A stretch of DNA of 64,000 nt from Fictibacillus terranigra. Its GTDB lineage: Bacteria; Bacillota; Bacilli; Bacillales; Fictibacillaceae. Position 1 is the first letter of the stretch. Each line of letters begins with the position of its first letter. The stretch spans positions 124,001-188,000 of the forward strand of contig NZ_JAUHLN010000003.1 of the NCBI RefSeq assembly GCF_030412265.1, written 5' to 3'. Of the stretch, positions 3,926 through 12,217 are shown piece by piece. Both the position numbers and the translations under genes were made by a program. The notes below the pieces were generated by a model. The model had not been told where the DNA came from and made no database searches. It was given only the letters and a program-made list of their open reading frames with translations.

Positions 3926-4543
3926 TCAATCAAAATAAGCGGGTTCATGCGGATGATGCAATTGCCTGAAAGCCATCTCAATTTGAGATCTCGTATTCCT
4001 GTCTATTGATAATGCCGGGAGTTCCTCTTGAGAAAAAAAGTCCACTGCGGTCGTTTCAATTCCAGTGAGTGCCTGTCCACCTACTATTTCACATTTGATA
4101 AAAATTTTATAAGTGTGATAAGGAGAAGGAGGATGCGGGTGACACTTTTTATCGAGTACTCCTAACAGCTTGATTGCTCTTACATCAAACCCAGATTCCT
4201 CTTTTACTTCGTTAACAGCTACTTCACTTGGTGACAGTCCTATATCACCCCAGCCTCCGGGTAATGACCAGCCTCCATCCGTTTTTTCTTTGACCATTAA
4301 TAATTTTTTGTTCCTAAATACAACAGCCCTAATATCCACTTTAGGTGTTGCATAACCAGTTTCATTGGCAAACAAATCGCTTATGGCTGACTCATCTAAA
4401 TCAGTAAAGGACGACAATATTTCAACACTGATTTTTCTGATCGATTCAAATCTTTCCAAGTCGTAAACATCTTTGGAGTAGGTTAATCCAGCCTGGGCAA
4501 TAGATTGAAGCTGCTTCGACCATTCAAGCCATTTGGGTTCCAT
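3926..4543 (-). CDS. NUDIX hydrolase (YjhB-like, with N-terminal domain)
   Basis: Hydrolase of nucleoside-diphosphate derivatives, 205 residues. The first ~65 residues resemble the N-terminal Nudix_N_2 domain (WLEWSKQLQSIAQAGLTY). The NUDIX box follows in the middle (GGWGDIGLSPSE, then NEVKEESGFD), giving the metal-binding EVKEE glutamates. I start at the ATG preceded by GGTGGTGAG rather than the upstream one. A TATAAT hexamer sits about 20 bases upstream. Substrate (ADP-ribose or another NDP-X) cannot be assigned. Confidence 0.85.
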   Translation of the reverse strand: MEPKWLEWSKQLQSIAQAGLTYSKDVYDLERFESIRKISVEILSSFTDLDESAISDLFANETGYATPKVDIRAVVFRNKKLLMVKEKTDGGWSLPGGWGDIGLSPSEVAVNEVKEESGFDVRAIKLLGVLDKKCHPHPPSPYHTYKIFIKCEIVGGQALTGIETTAVDFFSQEELPALSIDRNTRSQIEMAFRQLHHPHEPAYFD

Positions 4544-4648
4544 ATATCTCACCACCAATACCATTATACCTAAATATTACCATATGTTTCTCTTAAAAGT
4601 CTGTAAAAGAAGAAAATTGACTGTGAATGATCAAAGCCGTCATTTATA

Positions 4649-4685
4649 AAAAACGAGGCTCCAATTTCGGAGCCTCGTTTTTTAT
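4649..4685. terminator. Strong bidirectional terminator
   Basis: Twelve-pair stem AACGAGGCTCC/GGAGCCTCGTT with a short loop, A-run before and T-run after. It ends the small gene just upstream on the minus strand and insulates the NUDIX gene. Confidence 0.9.
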
Positions 4686-4909
4686 TACCTTAGTACATGG
4701 ACATAACTGATCTGGTCGTTCCACCCGTCACCGACGTAGGCAATATCCTGTCCTGGAGGAAAAGTCTTGCATGGTTCCCCTCTAAAACTGTTATAACATA
4801 CTTCAGTACCACTGCTTTCACCAGCTGTTTTCAATGAAGAGATGACGTCGCAAAAATTGCAAAAATGAACAAGCCAATACTCTGTGTCTTTACACACTCG
4901 GTGGCTCAT
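4685..4909 (-). CDS. Small cysteine-containing protein, function unknown
   Basis: Open frame of 74 codons ending directly on a strong terminator. GAGG lies 9 bases before the chosen ATG. The C-terminal half (CYNSFRGEPC, FPPGQD, GDGWNDQIS) faintly resembles a beta/gamma-crystallin or I36 inhibitor motif, but I do not recognise the protein. It may be the remaining piece of a longer gene. Confidence 0.4.
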   Translation of the reverse strand: MSHRVCKDTEYWLVHFCNFCDVISSLKTAGESSGTEVCYNSFRGEPCKTFPPGQDIAYVGDGWNDQISYVHVLR

Positions 4910-5075
4910 AACTATCAGCCTCATTAAGGTACTATGCAGCTAGGATACACCTTTTCGATACCAATTAACTATTGTAGATTTTCAACACACAGAATGATGA
5001 GACCAATGAAATCGGACGATGGTATTCCTAACTATTTACAAATGTGTGGATACAGAATTTTTTTACAATATGAAT

Positions 5076-6005
5076 TTAAGCGATTCCTCTTGGCGGGTTA
5101 TTCCTATTCTTAGTTAAAGCGTTCAGCTGTCGCTTGAAATGAAGGGTCTGCAGCCAAAGCCTATAAATGAGAGCTGCTTCAAACAGTATCATGATAATAG
5201 AGCTGAGGATTACTCCTTCTTTTATGAAGCCGATTAGTGGAGCGATGATAAAAATGGACATTTGGTATTCAATTCCGCTCATGAGATGCAAGCGAACCCT
5301 TCTTTTTAAAAAGAACGATCTTATTTTTATATAGGAGGGAAACCGGTAGACGACTTCCCCTAAAAACTTCTCTTGTATACGCAGGTCTTCCTTGGCGGCC
5401 TTTCTGCAGCACAATGATGGCTTGCCTTTAAACATTTGGACCAACTTGAGGCGCGAAGTCATTACACGTTTTTTTTCATTTATAAATGTGCTCTTTGCCT
5501 TGTCTATTTTTTTTCGCATTTCATTCAGCGATTTGTAGGCTAGCAACGAATTCATGTATCGTGTACTATCCAAAAAGCAAACGATCGCAGCTAAATAAAA
5601 ATAAACGGCTTGTCCTGTCTGGTGATATTGACCAAGCATCAATGAAAAAGCACAGATAGCAACACGGGTACGATCCAAAATATAGTCTAACCACGCCCCG
5701 AAGATGGAACCGGTTCCTTTAAGGCGGGATATTTTCCCATCCATGCAATCTAAAGAAAAACTGATATGATATAAAACAGCACCAATGATTATCGCAGAAT
5801 AGGTACCCTGATAAAACTGATAGGCGGCTAATAGACCAGTGAAGAATGCTAATAGCGTAAGTTGATTGGGGGTAACCTTCGTGTAATTGGCTAGTGGGAA
5901 CATCAATCGGGATGCGACTGGATCCACCAAAAAAACGGTCCACCAGGCATCTTTCTGTTTATAAGAATTCTTAATATCTTCCATTGAATATTTGTTGGGT
6001 GTCAA
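5076..6005 (-). CDS. CDP-alcohol phosphatidyltransferase family protein
   Basis: Integral membrane enzyme that would transfer a phospho-alcohol from a CDP-activated donor to an acceptor hydroxyl. The family signature DGx2ARx8Gx3Dx3D is present as DGKISR-x8-G-x3-D-x3-D (in CMDGKISR...GAWLDYILD), with Ser replacing the usual Ala; all acidic ligands are kept. About six hydrophobic segments are visible, plus a basic central cytoplasmic stretch (KKIDKAKSTFINEKKR). The frame is open further upstream into the preceding gene, but AAGGAG lies 10 bases before a TTG at 6005, which I take as the start; the ATG at 5984 is the alternative. Last gene of the four-gene kinase/NTP-transferase/dehydrogenase/CDP-alcohol operon. 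Products and acceptor unknown. Confidence 0.85.
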   Translation of the reverse strand: MTPNKYSMEDIKNSYKQKDAWWTVFLVDPVASRLMFPLANYTKVTPNQLTLLAFFTGLLAAYQFYQGTYSAIIIGAVLYHISFSLDCMDGKISRLKGTGSIFGAWLDYILDRTRVAICAFSLMLGQYHQTGQAVYFYLAAIVCFLDSTRYMNSLLAYKSLNEMRKKIDKAKSTFINEKKRVMTSRLKLVQMFKGKPSLCCRKAAKEDLRIQEKFLGEVVYRFPSYIKIRSFFLKRRVRLHLMSGIEYQMSIFIIAPLIGFIKEGVILSSIIMILFEAALIYRLWLQTLHFKRQLNALTKNRNNPPRGIA

Positions 6006-6027
6006 ATAAACCACACTCCTTATTATC

Positions 6028-7095
6028 TTATGGTGAGAGAGGAAATACCTCATCTAAAACATGGCTAATGTGTTTAGCCGTTAGCTCCGTTTCATTTAAA
6101 ATAGTGTAACGATTCCGTATGGTAGCGGCATTCTGAATCGCCAGGCACATCTCCTCCTTCGTATAACCCAGCTCTCTGTAATGGAGAGGAAGACCTAATC
6201 GCTTAAAATATTGTCTCATGTTGTTCTCTGAGTTGTGATTACCTTGCAAATATTCAGAAACTAACATCCCCAAGGCAACCTGTTCCCCATGGAGTGCTTT
6301 TCCTCCACAGTAATAATCCAGGGCGTGGCTGATTAAGTGTTCCGAACCACTGCACGGTCTGCTCGAACCCGCGATCGCCATCGCCATTCCACTCATGATC
6401 AGTGATTCGGCAGCCACCTGCATCAAAACTTCATTGCTTTTGTTTTTTTGATTGATTTTATTCAAAAAAGCTTCTGTCGCTTTATCGGCAATTAAACTAG
6501 CAAAGCCATTCATTTTTTCTTTCTTCACTTGATGCGCCAGTTTCCAATCTTCAAGCGCCGTCTTATTGGATAGCAAGTCTCCGATTCCAGAAGAAAATAA
6601 CCGTGCGGGTGAACGGGCCACGGTGTCAAAGTCTATCACGACAGCCCGAGGCATTCTAACTTCAATGCTAATATTCTTGGTTTGGCTTACGCGGATCGAG
6701 GCTACGGGTGAACAGATTGCATCACTGGATAATGCTGTCGGTACAAGTATGACAGGCAAATTCATTCTCGTACCGACGACCTTAGATACATCCAATACCT
6801 TACCGCCTCCAACTCCGATGATCATTTCTGCAAAAACCTGCTGTGCTTCATTTTCTAACTCATCAACCGTCTGAAGCGTGTTGTCTTTGCAGTACAGTGC
6901 CTTCACCTGTGTCGGCTGCAGGTTCAGGCCGGTGATCAGCTGTTCACCTATTTGACGAGTGGGACCTCTCCCACTCATTACAACCACTCTCCGTTCAGCC
7001 AAAAATTCAACAATTTCACTTCCATGCAAATGTTCGAATGCTTTGGACTGAAGAATTAAATGAGTCGGGAGTTCCACCTTTACCTTCTTCGACAT
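6028..7095 (-). CDS. Glycerol-1-phosphate dehydrogenase-like enzyme
   Basis: Polyol-phosphate dehydrogenase of the iron-alcohol-dehydrogenase/dehydroquinate-synthase superfamily, 355 residues. The NAD-binding motif GVGGGKVLDVSK (94-105), VPTALSSDAICSP (118-130), GDLLSNKTALEDW (172-184), SGSEHLISHALD (249-260) and HGEQ (269-272) match the archaeal G1P dehydrogenase/AraM pattern, giving metal ligands D173, H253 and H269. AraM in Bacillus makes sn-glycerol-1-phosphate for archaeal-type lipids. Here the gene sits between a nucleotidyltransferase and a CDP-alcohol transferase, so its product is probably the alcohol phosphate or acceptor of a CDP-alcohol pathway. The exact substrate is inference. 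Confidence 0.85.
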   Translation of the reverse strand: MSKKVKVELPTHLILQSKAFEHLHGSEIVEFLAERRVVVMSGRGPTRQIGEQLITGLNLQPTQVKALYCKDNTLQTVDELENEAQQVFAEMIIGVGGGKVLDVSKVVGTRMNLPVILVPTALSSDAICSPVASIRVSQTKNISIEVRMPRAVVIDFDTVARSPARLFSSGIGDLLSNKTALEDWKLAHQVKKEKMNGFASLIADKATEAFLNKINQKNKSNEVLMQVAAESLIMSGMAMAIAGSSRPCSGSEHLISHALDYYCGGKALHGEQVALGMLVSEYLQGNHNSENNMRQYFKRLGLPLHYRELGYTKEEMCLAIQNAATIRNRYTILNETELTAKHISHVLDEVFPLSP

Positions 7096-7107
7096 TTTAC
7101 CCCCCCT

Positions 7108-7824
7108 TTAAGATGGCCACATGGCAGTAATAAGCTGTTTCGCGCAATTCAAATCTTGCACATCGTCTATTTCAATCCATGGGTATCCATCCGTATTAAC
7201 AACCATAATCGGCACGTCTGCAGCACAAGCTTCATACACGTTTTCATACCAGTACCGTGCTCCCCCAGCTTCAATCATCTCTGTAGCTTTTTGGTATAAA
7301 ATTTTCAGATCATCTAGAGCCAATTTAGAAATCCCAATATATTCGCCATCCGTACCATCCTTATTCAATTGCTTATTGATGAACCGCAAGCGTTTGTCAT
7401 TCAGCTTTACCTTCATCGCTTCATCCGTTAGTTTTTTTTCCCGGTCTACCAAAATACAAGTGGGAAACTGTGATTTCAAGATCAATGAAATTAATCGATG
7501 GTCGAAAATGACATCTGAATTGACCAGCAATAAATCATCATCCACAGCTTGGGAAAGTAAAAATGAATAAATGTTGTTCATTGATTCATAGTGTGGATTG
7601 TATATAAAATGGACTCCTGTTCCTGTTAAATACTCTTCAATTCTCTTAAACATATAGCCGCCTACGATATAGATATCTTCATAGGCAAAACCGGAGTTTA
7701 TCACACTTTCTACCTGGTACTGCACTAAAGGTTTTCCATTAATTCTAACCATTGCTTTTGGGTTGTTCATCGTATAAGGATGTAACCGGCTTCCAACTCC
7801 AGCAGCCAATATCACTACTTTCAT
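7108..7824 (-). CDS. LicC-like nucleotidyltransferase
   Basis: Sugar- or alcohol-phosphate nucleotidyltransferase of 238 residues. The N-terminal nucleotide-binding signature AAGVGSRLHP with the downstream PKAM lysine is intact, followed by NPHYESMNNIYS and an NSDV metal site. The NNIYS motif and length are typical of LicC/CTP:phosphocholine cytidylyltransferases. GGAGGG precedes the ATG. The gene is sandwiched between a CotS-family kinase and a G1P-dehydrogenase-like gene, with a CDP-alcohol transferase last in the operon, so CTP use and a CDP-linked product are likely but not proven. Confidence 0.85.
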   Translation of the reverse strand: MKVVILAAGVGSRLHPYTMNNPKAMVRINGKPLVQYQVESVINSGFAYEDIYIVGGYMFKRIEEYLTGTGVHFIYNPHYESMNNIYSFLLSQAVDDDLLLVNSDVIFDHRLISLILKSQFPTCILVDREKKLTDEAMKVKLNDKRLRFINKQLNKDGTDGEYIGISKLALDDLKILYQKATEMIEAGGARYWYENVYEACAADVPIMVVNTDGYPWIEIDDVQDLNCAKQLITAMWPS

Positions 7825-7849
7825 ACGTAACCCTCCTATCTATAACCGT

Positions 7850-8851
7850 TTATGACATTGGCCCCATCCCAAGGTCGGTTAGTTTTTGTTCGTCGATCGC
7901 AATGCAGCGTTCCAATTCATTTAATAGTTTCGGGTTTCTTGAATCGTTGAAATACTTATGTGCGTATCGAATCGCTTTATGGGGAAAAATTTGGTCAAGC
8001 AGAAGAAGATCATATTCCTCAGCAGAAAGTGGGCGAATTTGCTGGTATGCATCCACAATGAATTGGAATCTTTCCCCGGACCATGCTCCTAGAGCATGAT
8101 TGATCCAAGTAATGAGATGGGATATATCCCTCATGGGAAGAGCGATGCTTACGGTATCAAAATCGATGACGGTTAATTCGTTACTGTTACTGCATAGCAG
8201 ATTAAGAGGGGAATAATCGCCATGTGCGAGATGTGGATCAAGCCTTGCGGCAGCCAACAGATGACTTAAAGCCGTATGGGGAAGCTGATCAAGTACCCAG
8301 TTGACACGGGATTGAAGCCAAGGCAGATGGCACAAATAAACCTTTGAGAACGGATCCCCGCTAATATTGGCCTTTACTTGGCATTTTGCCATCTTTTTAA
8401 CCTTTCTTTTATAGATTTCATTCCAATCGAGACGGGTATCAAAAATCGGATGTCCTGCAGCAGCATACCCTTCGGAGGCAACATGGAATTTTGCAAGCAG
8501 CATAGCCATTCTTTCTATCATTTCTGACTCTGCATATCCGGGCTGCTCCCCTTCCAACCATTGAAACAGCAGGAAACAGCCTTTATTGACGTTTACGAAC
8601 GAAGTTCCATCCAAAGTTGATAGAACAGTCGTGACCGGAACCCCTTTTTCGCGCATATACCCATTGACTGCAGCGATGATCGGGGCTCTTTCGCATTTAG
8701 TCAGGTATTTTAGTGCATAGACACCTTTGTTTATATCGGTAATCTTCCATAACTCTCTATCCGATTTTCGTCTTATTAGGACCATCTTATCCGGCTGGAT
8801 CCCATAATTTTTTTGTAAGATTTCAGCAACAGCTTTCTCTGTTATCTCCAT
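7850..8851 (-). CDS. CotS-family kinase-fold protein (spore coat)
   Basis: Aminoglycoside-phosphotransferase/choline-kinase fold protein of 333 residues. The catalytic loop HGDYSPLN and metal-binding VIDFDTVS are intact, and the following LPMRDISHLI matches the CotS/YutH/CotI group of Bacillus spore coat proteins. It is the first gene of the operon and has a sigma-K-like promoter about 35 bases upstream of its GAGGTGATG ribosome site. An intact catalytic centre suggests it phosphorylates a small alcohol or amine that the next gene would activate with a nucleotide. A purely structural coat role, as for CotS, remains possible. Confidence 0.85.
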   Translation of the reverse strand: MEITEKAVAEILQKNYGIQPDKMVLIRRKSDRELWKITDINKGVYALKYLTKCERAPIIAAVNGYMREKGVPVTTVLSTLDGTSFVNVNKGCFLLFQWLEGEQPGYAESEMIERMAMLLAKFHVASEGYAAAGHPIFDTRLDWNEIYKRKVKKMAKCQVKANISGDPFSKVYLCHLPWLQSRVNWVLDQLPHTALSHLLAAARLDPHLAHGDYSPLNLLCSNSNELTVIDFDTVSIALPMRDISHLITWINHALGAWSGERFQFIVDAYQQIRPLSAEEYDLLLLDQIFPHKAIRYAHKYFNDSRNPKLLNELERCIAIDEQKLTDLGMGPMS

Positions 8852-8884
8852 CTATCATCACCTCTTAGATTCTAGCGGTTCTTT

Positions 8885-8912
8885 TAATATATGAATCTCT
8901 TTAGAAAATGGT
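8885..8912 (-). promoter_or_regulatory. Sigma-K-like promoter of the CotS/CDP-alcohol operon
   Basis: Reading on the minus strand, ACC is followed after 16 bases by CATATATTA, an exact match to the sigma-K -10 consensus CATAnnnTA with a proper -35 AC. This predicts late mother-cell expression, matching the coat-protein-like first gene. Confidence 0.6.
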
Positions 8913-9015: not shown

Positions 9016-9669
9016 TTAGGGAACATATACCGATTTGACATGGGCCGGATTTAAGATCACCGTTTCACCATTGGCCGTTATAAGTTCGATGAGGTTGTTT
9101 TCTATTTTTTTCAGTAATCCAATCTTGTCCTGATCTTCACCCAAGTCAAACACGACTAAATTATCCTCCAATTTCTTTAATTGTTCTTCAAAAGAACGGC
9201 TTAGATTTTGCGTCTGTATGGGCAAACTGGTAATGGTATAAGGCGTTGCATTTTGATCGTGCAAGGTTAACCATTTTAAATGCGTTAGCGGTATATACAC
9301 GGTTTGATAAATGGGTGAATTAAATACAAAATAATCGCTTAACACACCTGTGACATATCCATACAATGGCTGTTTACCGCTCACCTGGATCTCGATAAAA
9401 AGTCCTTTCGCATTGGTTAGAATGGAACGATAAGAAATCTCCTTTTCTTGCTGAATTAAAGAATTTCCGGTTGGCTGGCTTATCTCCTCTTCTTCTTGGC
9501 TGCTAAGCTTTATTTTATGGACATGTATCAAAGGAATATAACGATACCTTTGTCCATCAAATAAAACTAAAATGTCATTTCCTATATCTGTGAAAATCCC
9601 TTGGATGAAATTCCCTCCTGTGACTTTCACCATGATTTGCTGATTGATTAGTTGCATTACGCTTTTCAA
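9016..9669 (-). CDS. CotB-like three-repeat spore coat protein
   Basis: Protein of about 217 residues built of three SH3/LSm-like repeats. The first reads LINQQIMVKVTGGNF...IPLIHVHKI, the second spans the middle (GYVTGVLSDYFVF...IPLTHLKWL), and the third is C-terminal (VILNPAHVKSV). This pattern, one short beta barrel per repeat ending in xHVKxI, matches the N-terminal part of B. subtilis CotB and DUF2642 proteins, but the Ser-rich CotB tail is absent. AAGGAG lies 9 bases before a TTG at 9669, which I prefer to the ATG at 9690. A paralogue lies at 11436-12098, across a permease gene. Spore coat location is inferred. Confidence 0.7.
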   Translation of the reverse strand: MKSVMQLINQQIMVKVTGGNFIQGIFTDIGNDILVLFDGQRYRYIPLIHVHKIKLSSQEEEEISQPTGNSLIQQEKEISYRSILTNAKGLFIEIQVSGKQPLYGYVTGVLSDYFVFNSPIYQTVYIPLTHLKWLTLHDQNATPYTITSLPIQTQNLSRSFEEQLKKLEDNLVVFDLGEDQDKIGLLKKIENNLIELITANGETVILNPAHVKSVYVP

Positions 9670-9739
9670 AAACATTCTCTCCTTTTTCATTTAAATGCAG
9701 TAAACCTGCTCGTCGTTTCATCTATTATCAGATACGCGA

Positions 9740-11435: not shown

Positions 11436-12098
11436 TTAAGGTAAATGCGCCGATTTAATATGAGAGAGCTTTAAGTATATGACCTCGCCACTGGCATCAA
11501 CAAGCTCAATCATTGCCTCACTGACTTTTTTTATTAATCCTATCTTCGTTGAATTATGGCCCATATCGAAAACCACAAGCTCCCCCTCCCATTTCTTGAT
11601 TTGATCTTCAAATGAACTAAGTAAGGGGATGTTGGAGGGGATCACTGGAACCTTTTCATGACTAAGATTGTACGGAGGGTTTTTTAAATGATAGGGAATC
11701 AGCCATTTCAAATGATGCAATGAAATGAGCACTGTTTTGTAGACAGGTGAGTAAAACGCAAAATAGTCACTGCGAACATTCATAATATACCCATGTATGG
11801 AGACGTTGCCTGTCACATAAACCTCGGTGAACAGACCTTTTGCGTTGGTTAGAATCTTACGATAGGAAATGGATTCTTTATCTTTTGCTAAAGAGGTTTC
11901 ATTTGGCGCACTTATATCATCATTGTTAATGGAACTCACATTTATTCTATGAACGTGTAATAATGGGATATAAACAAATTTTCGGCCATCAAATAATACA
12001 AGAATATCTTTACCGGTCTCAATAAGTATCCCTTGAAAAAACGTGTTTCCCGAAATCACGACATCAACTTGCTTTCCGCATAATACTGAAATGCCCAA
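11436..12098 (-). CDS. CotB-like three-repeat spore coat protein (paralogue)
   Basis: About 220 residues with the same three-repeat plan as the protein at 9016-9669: GKQVDVVISGNTFFQ...IPLLHVHRI, a middle repeat ending ISLHHLKWL, and a C-terminal repeat ending LKLSHIKS. Aligned by eye the two proteins share long blocks (LFDGRKF/LFDGQRY, SYRKILTNAKGLF/SYRSILTNAKGLF), so they arose by duplication. GGGGGAG precedes a TTG at 12098, which I take as the start. A CATATATAT stretch upstream resembles a sporulation -10 element but has no good -35. Confidence 0.7.
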   Translation of the reverse strand: MGISVLCGKQVDVVISGNTFFQGILIETGKDILVLFDGRKFVYIPLLHVHRINVSSINNDDISAPNETSLAKDKESISYRKILTNAKGLFTEVYVTGNVSIHGYIMNVRSDYFAFYSPVYKTVLISLHHLKWLIPYHLKNPPYNLSHEKVPVIPSNIPLLSSFEDQIKKWEGELVVFDMGHNSTKIGLIKKVSEAMIELVDASGEVIYLKLSHIKSAHLP

Positions 12099-12217
12099 GT
12101 AAACTCCCCCTACCATGAAAACAGGATAGTATTACAATATATATGTACAAACTGAACACTTTAGAAAAGAAAATTACAATGAATGGATTAAAAAGGGGCG
12201 GCTTTATAGATAAAATT

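What the first reader, a model, noticed from the sequence alone, without database searches (positions are those of the whole stretch)
5076..8912. Sigma-K-linked CDP-alcohol locus of likely spore-surface function
A CotS-family kinase with intact catalytic residues, a LicC-like nucleotidyltransferase, a G1P-dehydrogenase-like enzyme and a membrane CDP-alcohol phosphatidyltransferase are arranged tandemly behind one sigma-K-like promoter. The order kinase, nucleotidyltransferase, alcohol-phosphate maker, phosphatidyltransferase is what a complete pathway from free alcohol to CDP-alcohol to a phosphodiester-linked product would need. I know of no described coat pathway with this set; it could make an unusual lipid or coat-linked phospho-polyol.
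Basis: partly seen in the sequence, partly recalled or inferred. Interest (0 to 1): 0.85.

Follow-up and report, generated by a model that had tools for sequence, protein, structure and literature searches.

The report
Mobile glycerol-phosphate gene set, possibly for spores
Four neighbouring genes in a probably spore-forming bacterium look like a small, transferable pathway that makes and transfers an activated glycerol phosphate, of the mirror-image form used in archaeal lipids, and that has gained a spore-type kinase; what it builds has not been tested.

Summary
The four genes and the promoter-like element are really there. The set (CotS-type kinase, nucleotidyltransferase NT, glycerol-1-phosphate-dehydrogenase-like DH, CDP-alcohol phosphotransferase PT) recurs in the same order in Peribacillus saganii and Paenibacillus prosopidis with unrelated flanks; among 34 genomes of the host's family only the host has the NT (E 1e-30). 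It is a conserved, patchily spread cassette. Streptomyces has a similar region that a 2026 synteny paper links to teichoic acid. No kinase match was found in those loci. So DH, NT and PT most likely run from DHAP to sn-glycerol-1-phosphate to CDP-glycerol to a phosphodiester; the kinase, whose predicted pocket is basic, is an add-on acting on acceptor or product rather than the first step. With no exporter, a conserved sigma-K-like promoter and a CotS-type kinase, assembly in the mother cell (coat side) is plausible but not shown. Substrates, product and timing are inference. Verdict: real, a new variant of a known kind, interest 0.58.

The parts
8885..8912 (-). sigma-K/sigma-E-like promoter element (AC-N17-CATATATTA), -10 part conserved in three cassettes
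   Evidence: the sigma-70-type scan lists no site here
7850..8851 (-). CotS/CotI-type (bacterial spore kinase) small-molecule kinase, catalytic residues intact, several YtaA pocket residues replaced by basic ones
   Evidence: orthologues 70% (L005) and 68% (L006) identical
7108..7824 (-). LicC/IPCT-type nucleotidyltransferase, predicted CTP:glycerol-1-phosphate cytidylyltransferase
   Evidence: 57-63% identical to the NT of 14 larger clusters
6028..7095 (-). sn-glycerol-1-phosphate dehydrogenase-like enzyme, the only match of its kind in this genome at E 1e-5
5076..6005 (-). class I CDP-alcohol phosphotransferase (membrane enzyme), probable TTG start; the longest ORF starts at 6053
   Evidence: start inferred from AAGGAG and the orthologue frames

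Best explanation
The locus is a mobile four-gene cassette. DH reduces dihydroxyacetone phosphate to sn-glycerol-1-phosphate; NT couples it to CTP, giving CDP-glycerol of sn-1 (archaeal, opposite to TagD) configuration; PT, in the membrane, transfers the glycerol-1-phosphoryl group to a hydroxyl acceptor, forming a phosphodiester. The kinase phosphorylates the acceptor or the product. NT, DH and PT come from the core of a TagGH-linked teichoic-acid-like envelope system. The cassette has no glycosyltransferase, second PT or exporter. If the sigma-K-like promoter is real, the enzymes act in the mother cell, on the outer forespore membrane or the coat, where no export is needed. Shown: gene content, conservation, cluster relationship, catalytic motifs. 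Inferred: every substrate, the direction of the pathway, horizontal spread, timing and product.
For: Same four genes, same order, unrelated flanks in two other genera; proteins 62-77% identical between the three, with near-equal distances between the two Bacillaceae and the Paenibacillus. NT 57-63%, DH 52-57% and PT 40-49% identical to the members of the cluster GT2-PT'-NT-DH-ABC2-ATPase-PT, found in that order in 14 of 15 genomes with a strong PT hit; its ATPase, tested in one locus (L080), scores best with teichoic-acid-export models, below their cut-offs. Two other Bacillota genomes have Wzy_C, PF04464 (CDP-glycerol glycerophosphotransferase), NT, DH, MurJ and PT together, which points to CDP-glycerol as the NT product. 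DH on its own matches G1PDH entries at 155 and 149 bits (recalled as archaeal), another entry titled G1PDH at 88 and, 3ce9 apart, glycerol dehydrogenases at 83 or less, and keeps SRPxSGSEHxxSH. PT's best PDB relative is AF2299 (113 bits; next 78, 47), whose donor is CDP-glycerol (PMC4634129, passages). The host also has YsxE and YutH spore kinases above cut-off.
Against: No activity of any of the four enzymes is known. DH's very best PDB match (3ce9, 163 bits; 351 with the profile) is titled glycerol dehydrogenase. DH scores below the curated G1PDH cut-off (289 of 413) and NT reaches the cut-off of none of the 25 curated families listed. The nearest wider clusters are presumably vegetative envelope genes, so the core does not itself argue for spores. 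A -35 'AC' at this spacing is in the window copy only (read). No coat genes were recognised next to the cassette in the three loci.
Confidence: 0.45

Rival explanations
1. One reading: the kinase phosphorylates a free alcohol X, NT makes CDP-X, and DH supplies glycerol-1-phosphate as the acceptor (as inositol-1-phosphate is in PIP and DIPP synthases); PT joins them into X-phospho-glycerol-phosphate.
For: Kinase, LicC-like NT and PT together resemble a CDP-choline-type route. PIP synthases, relatives of PT, use a phosphorylated acceptor (PMC4634129, passages); R252 of PT is kept in at least 90% of 14 rows.
Against: No kinase match in the larger NT-DH-PT clusters, where a donor must still be made; two such clusters carry a PF04464 (CDP-glycerol-using) family member.
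Confidence: 0.22
2. Soluble phosphodiester solute, like diglycerol phosphate or glyceryl-inositol phosphate (both recalled): PT joins glycerol-1-phosphate to a soluble phosphorylated polyol, giving a stabilising compound in spores or cells.
For: PT's closest solved relatives (AF2299, DIPPS) do not process lipids (PMC4634129, passages); no exporter or glycosyltransferase of the larger cluster's kind at the cassette.
Against: The closest gene clusters are envelope-polymer-like clusters with glycosyltransferase and exporter, not solute loci.
Confidence: 0.13
3. Kennedy-type phospholipid synthesis: PT transfers the phospho-alcohol to diacylglycerol or another lipid alcohol.
For: PT is a membrane enzyme with weak similarity to cholinephosphotransferase (40 bits).
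Against: Lipid-acceptor enzymes typically carry three or four extra helices at the C terminus (PMC4634129, passages); PT has hydrophobic peaks only up to about residue 291 of 325 and is far closer to AF2299.
Confidence: 0.1
4. The DH simply supplies glycerol-1-phosphate for PcrB (heptaprenylglyceryl phosphate), since it is the genome's only G1PDH-like gene.
For: One DH match in the genome at E 1e-5 and one PcrB.
Against: 28 of 34 genomes of the family have no such DH at E 1e-20, so the family at large does not need one (PcrB was looked for only in the host and the tool's control genomes); DH stands with NT and PT in the three cassettes and in all 14 seven-gene clusters.
Confidence: 0.05

Closest known systems
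TagGH-linked CDP-alcohol/G1PDH region of Streptomyces (crtB, araM, tagG, tagH, CDP-alcohol phosphatidyltransferase, GT2, NT; PMC13118837, passages)
   Same: NT-DH-PT in the same order, G1PDH-type DH, LicC-type NT
   Different: Has glycosyltransferase, ABC exporter and a DUF5941-fused second PT; no kinase match; NT only 27-28% identical to the cassette NT
   Same: Nearest relatives of NT, DH and PT outside the cassettes in what was searched
   Different: Exporter, GT2 and second PT present; no kinase match; cassette keeps only three of the seven
Bacterial spore kinases (YtaA/CotI, CotS; PMC2860764)
   Same: Family, catalytic motifs, 162 bits with the CotS model
   Different: Below the CotS cut-off; YtaA pocket residues Q238, R271, K272, Y318, E319, Y321, D322 replaced, R268 kept (my reading)
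AF2299 / DIPP synthase / PIP synthase (class I CDP-alcohol phosphotransferases)
   Same: Signature motif; AF2299 is the closest solved relative
   Different: Separate NT instead of the cytidylyltransferase or cytidylyltransferase-like domain fused in DIPPS and AF2299; hydrophilic insert at about 175-255
TagD/TagF wall teichoic acid route (PMC7086022)
   Same: CDP-glycerol as predicted donor
   Different: Predicted sn-1 glycerol phosphate instead of sn-3; the transferase is of another family
CpgD route to ceramide diphosphoglycerate (PMC12275187)
   Same: IPCT-like cytidylyltransferase plus a kinase in one lipid pathway
   Different: Uses phosphoglycerate, not glycerol-1-phosphate; no G1PDH mentioned in the part read

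Membership tests
Bacterial spore kinase (CotS subfamily, TIGR02906) | Score over curated cut-off 172.7 | tested here: not met
   161.6 bits; the host's YsxE (126) and YutH (99) also miss this cut-off while passing their own
Bacterial spore kinase (CotS subfamily, TIGR02906) | Intact catalytic Asp/Asn and metal Asp | tested here: met
   HGDYSPLN and IDFDT
Bacterial spore kinase (CotS subfamily, TIGR02906) | Present in the spore coat, mother-cell expression | not testable with these tools
   needs transcription and proteome data
sn-Glycerol-1-phosphate dehydrogenase | Metal ligands Asp/His/His and SRPxSGSEHxxSH motif | tested here: met
   D173, H253, H269 invariant in 11 rows; motif
sn-Glycerol-1-phosphate dehydrogenase | Score over the NCBIfam G1PDH cut-off (413) | tested here: not met
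   289 bits
sn-Glycerol-1-phosphate dehydrogenase | Reduces DHAP to sn-glycerol-1-phosphate | not testable with these tools
   enzyme assay needed
CTP:alcohol-phosphate cytidylyltransferase (LicC/IPCT) | LAAGxGxRL...PK signature and best match to cytidylyltransferases | tested here: met
   signature; LicC (1jyk) best for the single sequence, PntC-type 6pd1 and LicC best for the profile (PntC name recalled)
CTP:alcohol-phosphate cytidylyltransferase (LicC/IPCT) | Uses CTP | not testable with these tools
   assay needed
Class I CDP-alcohol phosphotransferase | D..DG..AR x8 G...D...D | tested here: met
   met with S in place of A
Class I CDP-alcohol phosphotransferase | Six transmembrane helices | tested here: inconclusive
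   hydropathy peaks merge into about five regions; AlphaFold model too poor, pLDDT 56
TagGH-linked teichoic-acid-like system | Exporter and glycosyltransferase in the locus | tested here: not met
   no match to the cluster's GT2, permease or ATPase in the whole window or in the L005 and L006 loci at E 1e-8; no relative of the G019 PT' in the host genome at E 1e-15
Sigma-K regulon | mACm-N16-CATANNNTA promoter (recalled) | tested here: inconclusive
   window copy fits AC-N17-CATANNNTA; the -10 is kept in all three, the AC is not

The most novel reading that the evidence does not exclude
A horizontally moving cassette that makes CDP-sn-1-glycerol, an activated glycerol phosphate of archaeal handedness, in the mother cell and attaches it, with a dedicated spore-type kinase, to the coat or outer forespore membrane: an export-free, teichoic-acid-like phosphodiester layer of spores.
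Probability: 0.28. Interest if true: 0.82.

Novelty: new variant of a known kind. Interest (0 to 1): 0.58.

Why it matters
As far as I know (recalled; PMC2860764 names none in the sections read) the substrates of spore-coat kinases of the CotS/YtaA type are unknown. Here one stands with three enzymes whose chemistry can be assayed directly, so its substrate becomes testable. It would also give bacteria a route to activated sn-glycerol-1-phosphate outside ether lipids, and it links an uncharacterised TagGH-like cluster, seen in Streptomyces and in 14 genomes of this class, to a minimal version with three of its enzymes.

Tried and rejected
Structure prediction of PT (4 rows) and NT (3 rows) gave mean pLDDT 56 and 45; no fold search was run and nothing rests on them. 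Viral contigs: no relative of PT. Plasmid tblastn with PT, DH and NT gave distant members only, at most 41% identical for PT among the rows listed, among them the Streptomyces, Nonomuraea and Sulfitobacter loci. The Nitratidesulfovibrio and Cytobacillus DH relatives have no NT or PT annotated within 8 kb. Considered and set aside: a phosphonolipid module (Sulfitobacter L018 looks like one, with an aminotransferase; I saw no such gene next to the cassette); DH as supplier of PcrB only; a sigma-70 promoter. The promoter match alone was rejected as evidence (4 seen, 1.2 expected). A GerE or SpoIIID reading of the conserved GTCCA was considered from recalled motifs and dropped as too weak. Paper searches in which I saw no description of the four-gene set (listings only, except the papers named); the Streptomyces region turned up. 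First kinase test weak: tblastn at E 1e-5 misses even the host's other spore kinases, so I repeated it with a profile and those as controls. Rows dropped: the P. prosopidis PT fell out of the PT tree because the script ended its frame early; L097 (PT in two pieces) and three DUF5941-type proteins were left out of the tree. The DH tree has poor support in its centre, and the NT grouping (93/95) is not fully supported.
Full report
WHAT IS THERE. The window has four minus-strand genes in tandem at 5076-8851: a kinase (7850-8851), a nucleotidyltransferase (NT, 7108-7824), an iron-containing-alcohol-dehydrogenase-type enzyme (DH, 6028-7095) and a CDP-alcohol phosphotransferase (PT, 5076-6053). By sequence the best solved relatives are YtaA/CotI for the kinase, the LicC phosphocholine cytidylyltransferase for NT, an entry titled glycerol dehydrogenase (3ce9) closely followed by glycerol-1-phosphate dehydrogenases for DH, and AF2299 for PT. 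I read the PT start as TTG 6005 rather than ATG 6053: AAGGAG ends 10 nt before it, and the orthologue frames start at about the matching place. This removes the overlap with DH; the gap is 22 nt.

ACTIVE SITES. The kinase has HGDYSPLN and IDFDT; the three orthologues keep HGDYSxLN and ID[FL]DT. DH has SSRPCSGSEHLISH and HGEQ. PT has DCMDGKISRLKGTGSIFGAWLDYILD, the CDP-alcohol-phosphotransferase signature with S for A. In an 11-row DH alignment D173, H253 and H269 are invariant; that they are the metal ligands is recalled. Against YtaA (my reading of the alignment with the residue list of PMC2860764 section 20, numbering shifted by 11), R268 is kept (R241), but Q238, R271, K272, Y318, E319, Y321 and D322 become G211, S244, H245, H291, K292, I294 and R295; these are invariant in the three cassette kinases. 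So the substrate is probably not YtaA's, and the pocket looks basic, which suggests an anionic substrate. This is inference.

CONSERVATION OF THE FOUR. One scan of named genomes found PT relatives in three records. In Peribacillus saganii (L005) and Paenibacillus prosopidis (L006) the same four genes stand in the same order, with different flanking genes. Protein identities between the three cassettes are 62-77%, and blastn between the three loci gives one aligned piece each, inside the four genes. PT at E 1e-20 is in 2 of 397 genomes of the order (the host, and G341, whose stretch is the P. saganii locus). In the 34 genomes of the family, at E 1e-10, there is the host's own match plus one partial 26% match in G019. 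The NT is in 1 of 34 family genomes at E 1e-30, the host. A close relative of the kinase (E 1e-60, up to five candidates scored per genome) is in 1 of 396 genomes of the class, the host. The picture is a rare, probably horizontally spread unit whose kinase was not met apart from it.

THE WIDER CLUSTER. The class-wide draw found PT in 54 of 398 genomes, 27 of 146 genera; in 15 of them, the host aside, the match is strong (best match about 285 bits or more). The other genomes' matches are weak (about 75-100 bits); of those I looked only at four short loci (L074-L077), which show no NT or DH match. I fetched 20 stretches from the 15 strong genomes. In 14 of 15 a seven-gene cluster stands in one order: glycosyltransferase GT2, a second CDP-OH phosphotransferase (PT'), NT, DH, ABC-2 permease, ABC ATPase, PT (Pfam checked on the GT2, PT', permease and ATPase of L080 only). 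The exception is G1249, where only a PT in two pieces was seen in the stretch taken; a second PT place there was not fetched. The G1218 PT match holds a stop. Window NT is 57-63%, DH 52-57% and PT 40-49% identical to those members. The ATPase of L080 scores best with teichoic-acid-export models, 245 and 223 bits, below their cut-offs of 538 and 320. Five of the 20 stretches carry a PT without NT or DH.

NO KINASE THERE. A profile of the three cassette kinases, run over stop-to-stop frames at E 0.01, finds nothing in the 14 cluster loci, the 6 other stretches, or 11 further loci with related genes, but finds 4 of 4 of the host's other CotS-type genes given as controls. Among 100 loci held, tblastn finds the kinase only in copies of the window locus and in L005, L006 and L022, L022 being the P. 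saganii place again.

OTHER FORMS. Two high-GC Bacillota genomes (G596, G508) have Wzy_C, PF04464 (CDP-glycerol glycerophosphotransferase family), NT, DH, MurJ and PT in one run. G504 has two glycosyltransferases, MurJ, NT, DH, PT. Streptomyces fungicidicus has a DUF5941 protein with a CDP-OH domain, NT, DH, PT, GT2, ABC permease and ATPase beside hopanoid genes. [quoted passage not shown]). The wider cluster is thus noted in print in Streptomyces, without biochemistry in the passages seen. The closest actinomycete PTs (36-43%; L003, L004, L007) stand without NT or DH matches in the stretches held.

TREES. PT of the window and P. saganii falls in one clade of 23 rows with the PTs of the seven-gene clusters and the lone PTs (100/97), apart from PT' and the Streptomyces PT. 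The cassette NTs join the cluster NTs (17 rows, 93/95, short of full support). The three cassette DHs form a clade (100/100) next to the cluster DHs, far from the four AraM-like DHs of the family (AraM-like is my label). The P. prosopidis PT is missing from the PT tree because of a script fault.

HOW IT PROBABLY WORKS. The shared core is NT-DH-PT, with no match to this kinase outside the cassettes. DH alone scores 155 and 149 bits with G1PDH entries recalled as archaeal, 88 with another entry titled G1PDH, and 83 or less with the other glycerol dehydrogenases; but its top match, 3ce9 (163 bits), is titled glycerol dehydrogenase. In G596 and G508 a CDP-glycerol-using family neighbours NT. PT's best PDB relative, AF2299, has CDP-glycerol as donor and does not process lipids (PMC4634129, passages). 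The simplest route is DHAP, sn-glycerol-1-phosphate, CDP-sn-1-glycerol, phosphodiester. Wall teichoic acid uses the sn-3 form and lipoteichoic acid the sn-1 form from phosphatidylglycerol (PMC7086022, passages), so an activated sn-1 donor would be unusual. The kinase then acts on acceptor or product. The reverse (kinase product activated, G1P as acceptor) remains possible; PIP synthases take a phosphorylated acceptor (PMC4634129).

SPORE LINK. In a three-way alignment the block GTCC to -10 has 20 of 33 gap-free columns identical, the -10 8 of 9, GTCCA 5 of 5, against 13 of 87 upstream and 4 of 18 in the leader; the ribosome-binding stretch has 7 of 10. Against: one such match is near chance; the -35 AC is in the window copy only; the GTCCA spacing differs by one base between window and the other two; sigma-E and sigma-K -10 elements are alike (recalled). 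Absence of an exporter fits a mother-cell product, because the coat is assembled inside the mother cell (recalled); it also fits a soluble product.

LIMITS. No enzyme, product or expression was tested. The genome collections were drawn samples; the phylum draw (4 of 398 with PT) did not show the seven-gene clusters that the class draw did, so absences in such draws mean little. The named-genome search was one scan with exact peptide patterns. Structure models were too poor to use.

PAPERS SEEN. PMC2860764: abstract, outline, passages, sections 15 and 20. PMC12275187: part 1 of 4. PMC4634129, PMC7086022, PMC5059525, PMC13118837: passages. Others: listings only.

Noticed in passing
L078, L080, L095, L013, L023 and others: The second phosphotransferase PT' of the larger clusters (13 rows) and of L023, and the NT-DH-linked PT of L013, L014 and L017, fail the full CDP-alcohol-phosphotransferase signature: 17 of 51 rows, all of these kinds. 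In L013 and L023 the fourth Asp, the presumed catalytic base, is replaced; the other rows were not looked at one by one.
   Followed up: partly
G000 (window genome), L052 and window 6028-7095: The genome has PcrB but only one G1PDH-like gene, the one in the cassette; 28 of 34 family genomes have no G1PDH-like match at E 1e-20, so where PcrB gets glycerol-1-phosphate in this family is open.
   Followed up: partly
L018 (Sulfitobacter plasmid) 4775-7590: Aminotransferase, CDP-alcohol phosphotransferase and phosphocholine-cytidylyltransferase-type NT in a row, like a PntC-type phosphonate head-group module (recalled).
   Followed up: no
L095 8103-8837 and L023 6024-6770: A glycerophosphodiester phosphodiesterase (GDPD) next to the envelope cluster in both, which fits a glycerol phosphodiester product; not checked in the other clusters.
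   Followed up: partly
window 9016-9690 and 11436-12116: Two look-alike proteins with weak DUF2642/RimP-C/DUF6897 similarity on either side of an ArsB-like transporter.
   Followed up: no
window 4685-4924, minus strand: Small cysteine-containing ORF (79 aa) between the cassette and an inverted repeat with T-run at about 4655-4685 (read), no Pfam match.
   Followed up: no
window 3926-4564, minus strand: The Nudix gene downstream also has an AC-N16-18-CATANNNTA element within 150 nt upstream.
   Followed up: no
L019, L020: Wzy_C, PF04464 glycerophosphotransferase, NT, G1PDH-like DH, MurJ-type flippase and PT in one run in both: a possible sn-1 teichoic-acid-like pathway with a MurJ-type flippase instead of an ABC exporter.
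   Followed up: partly
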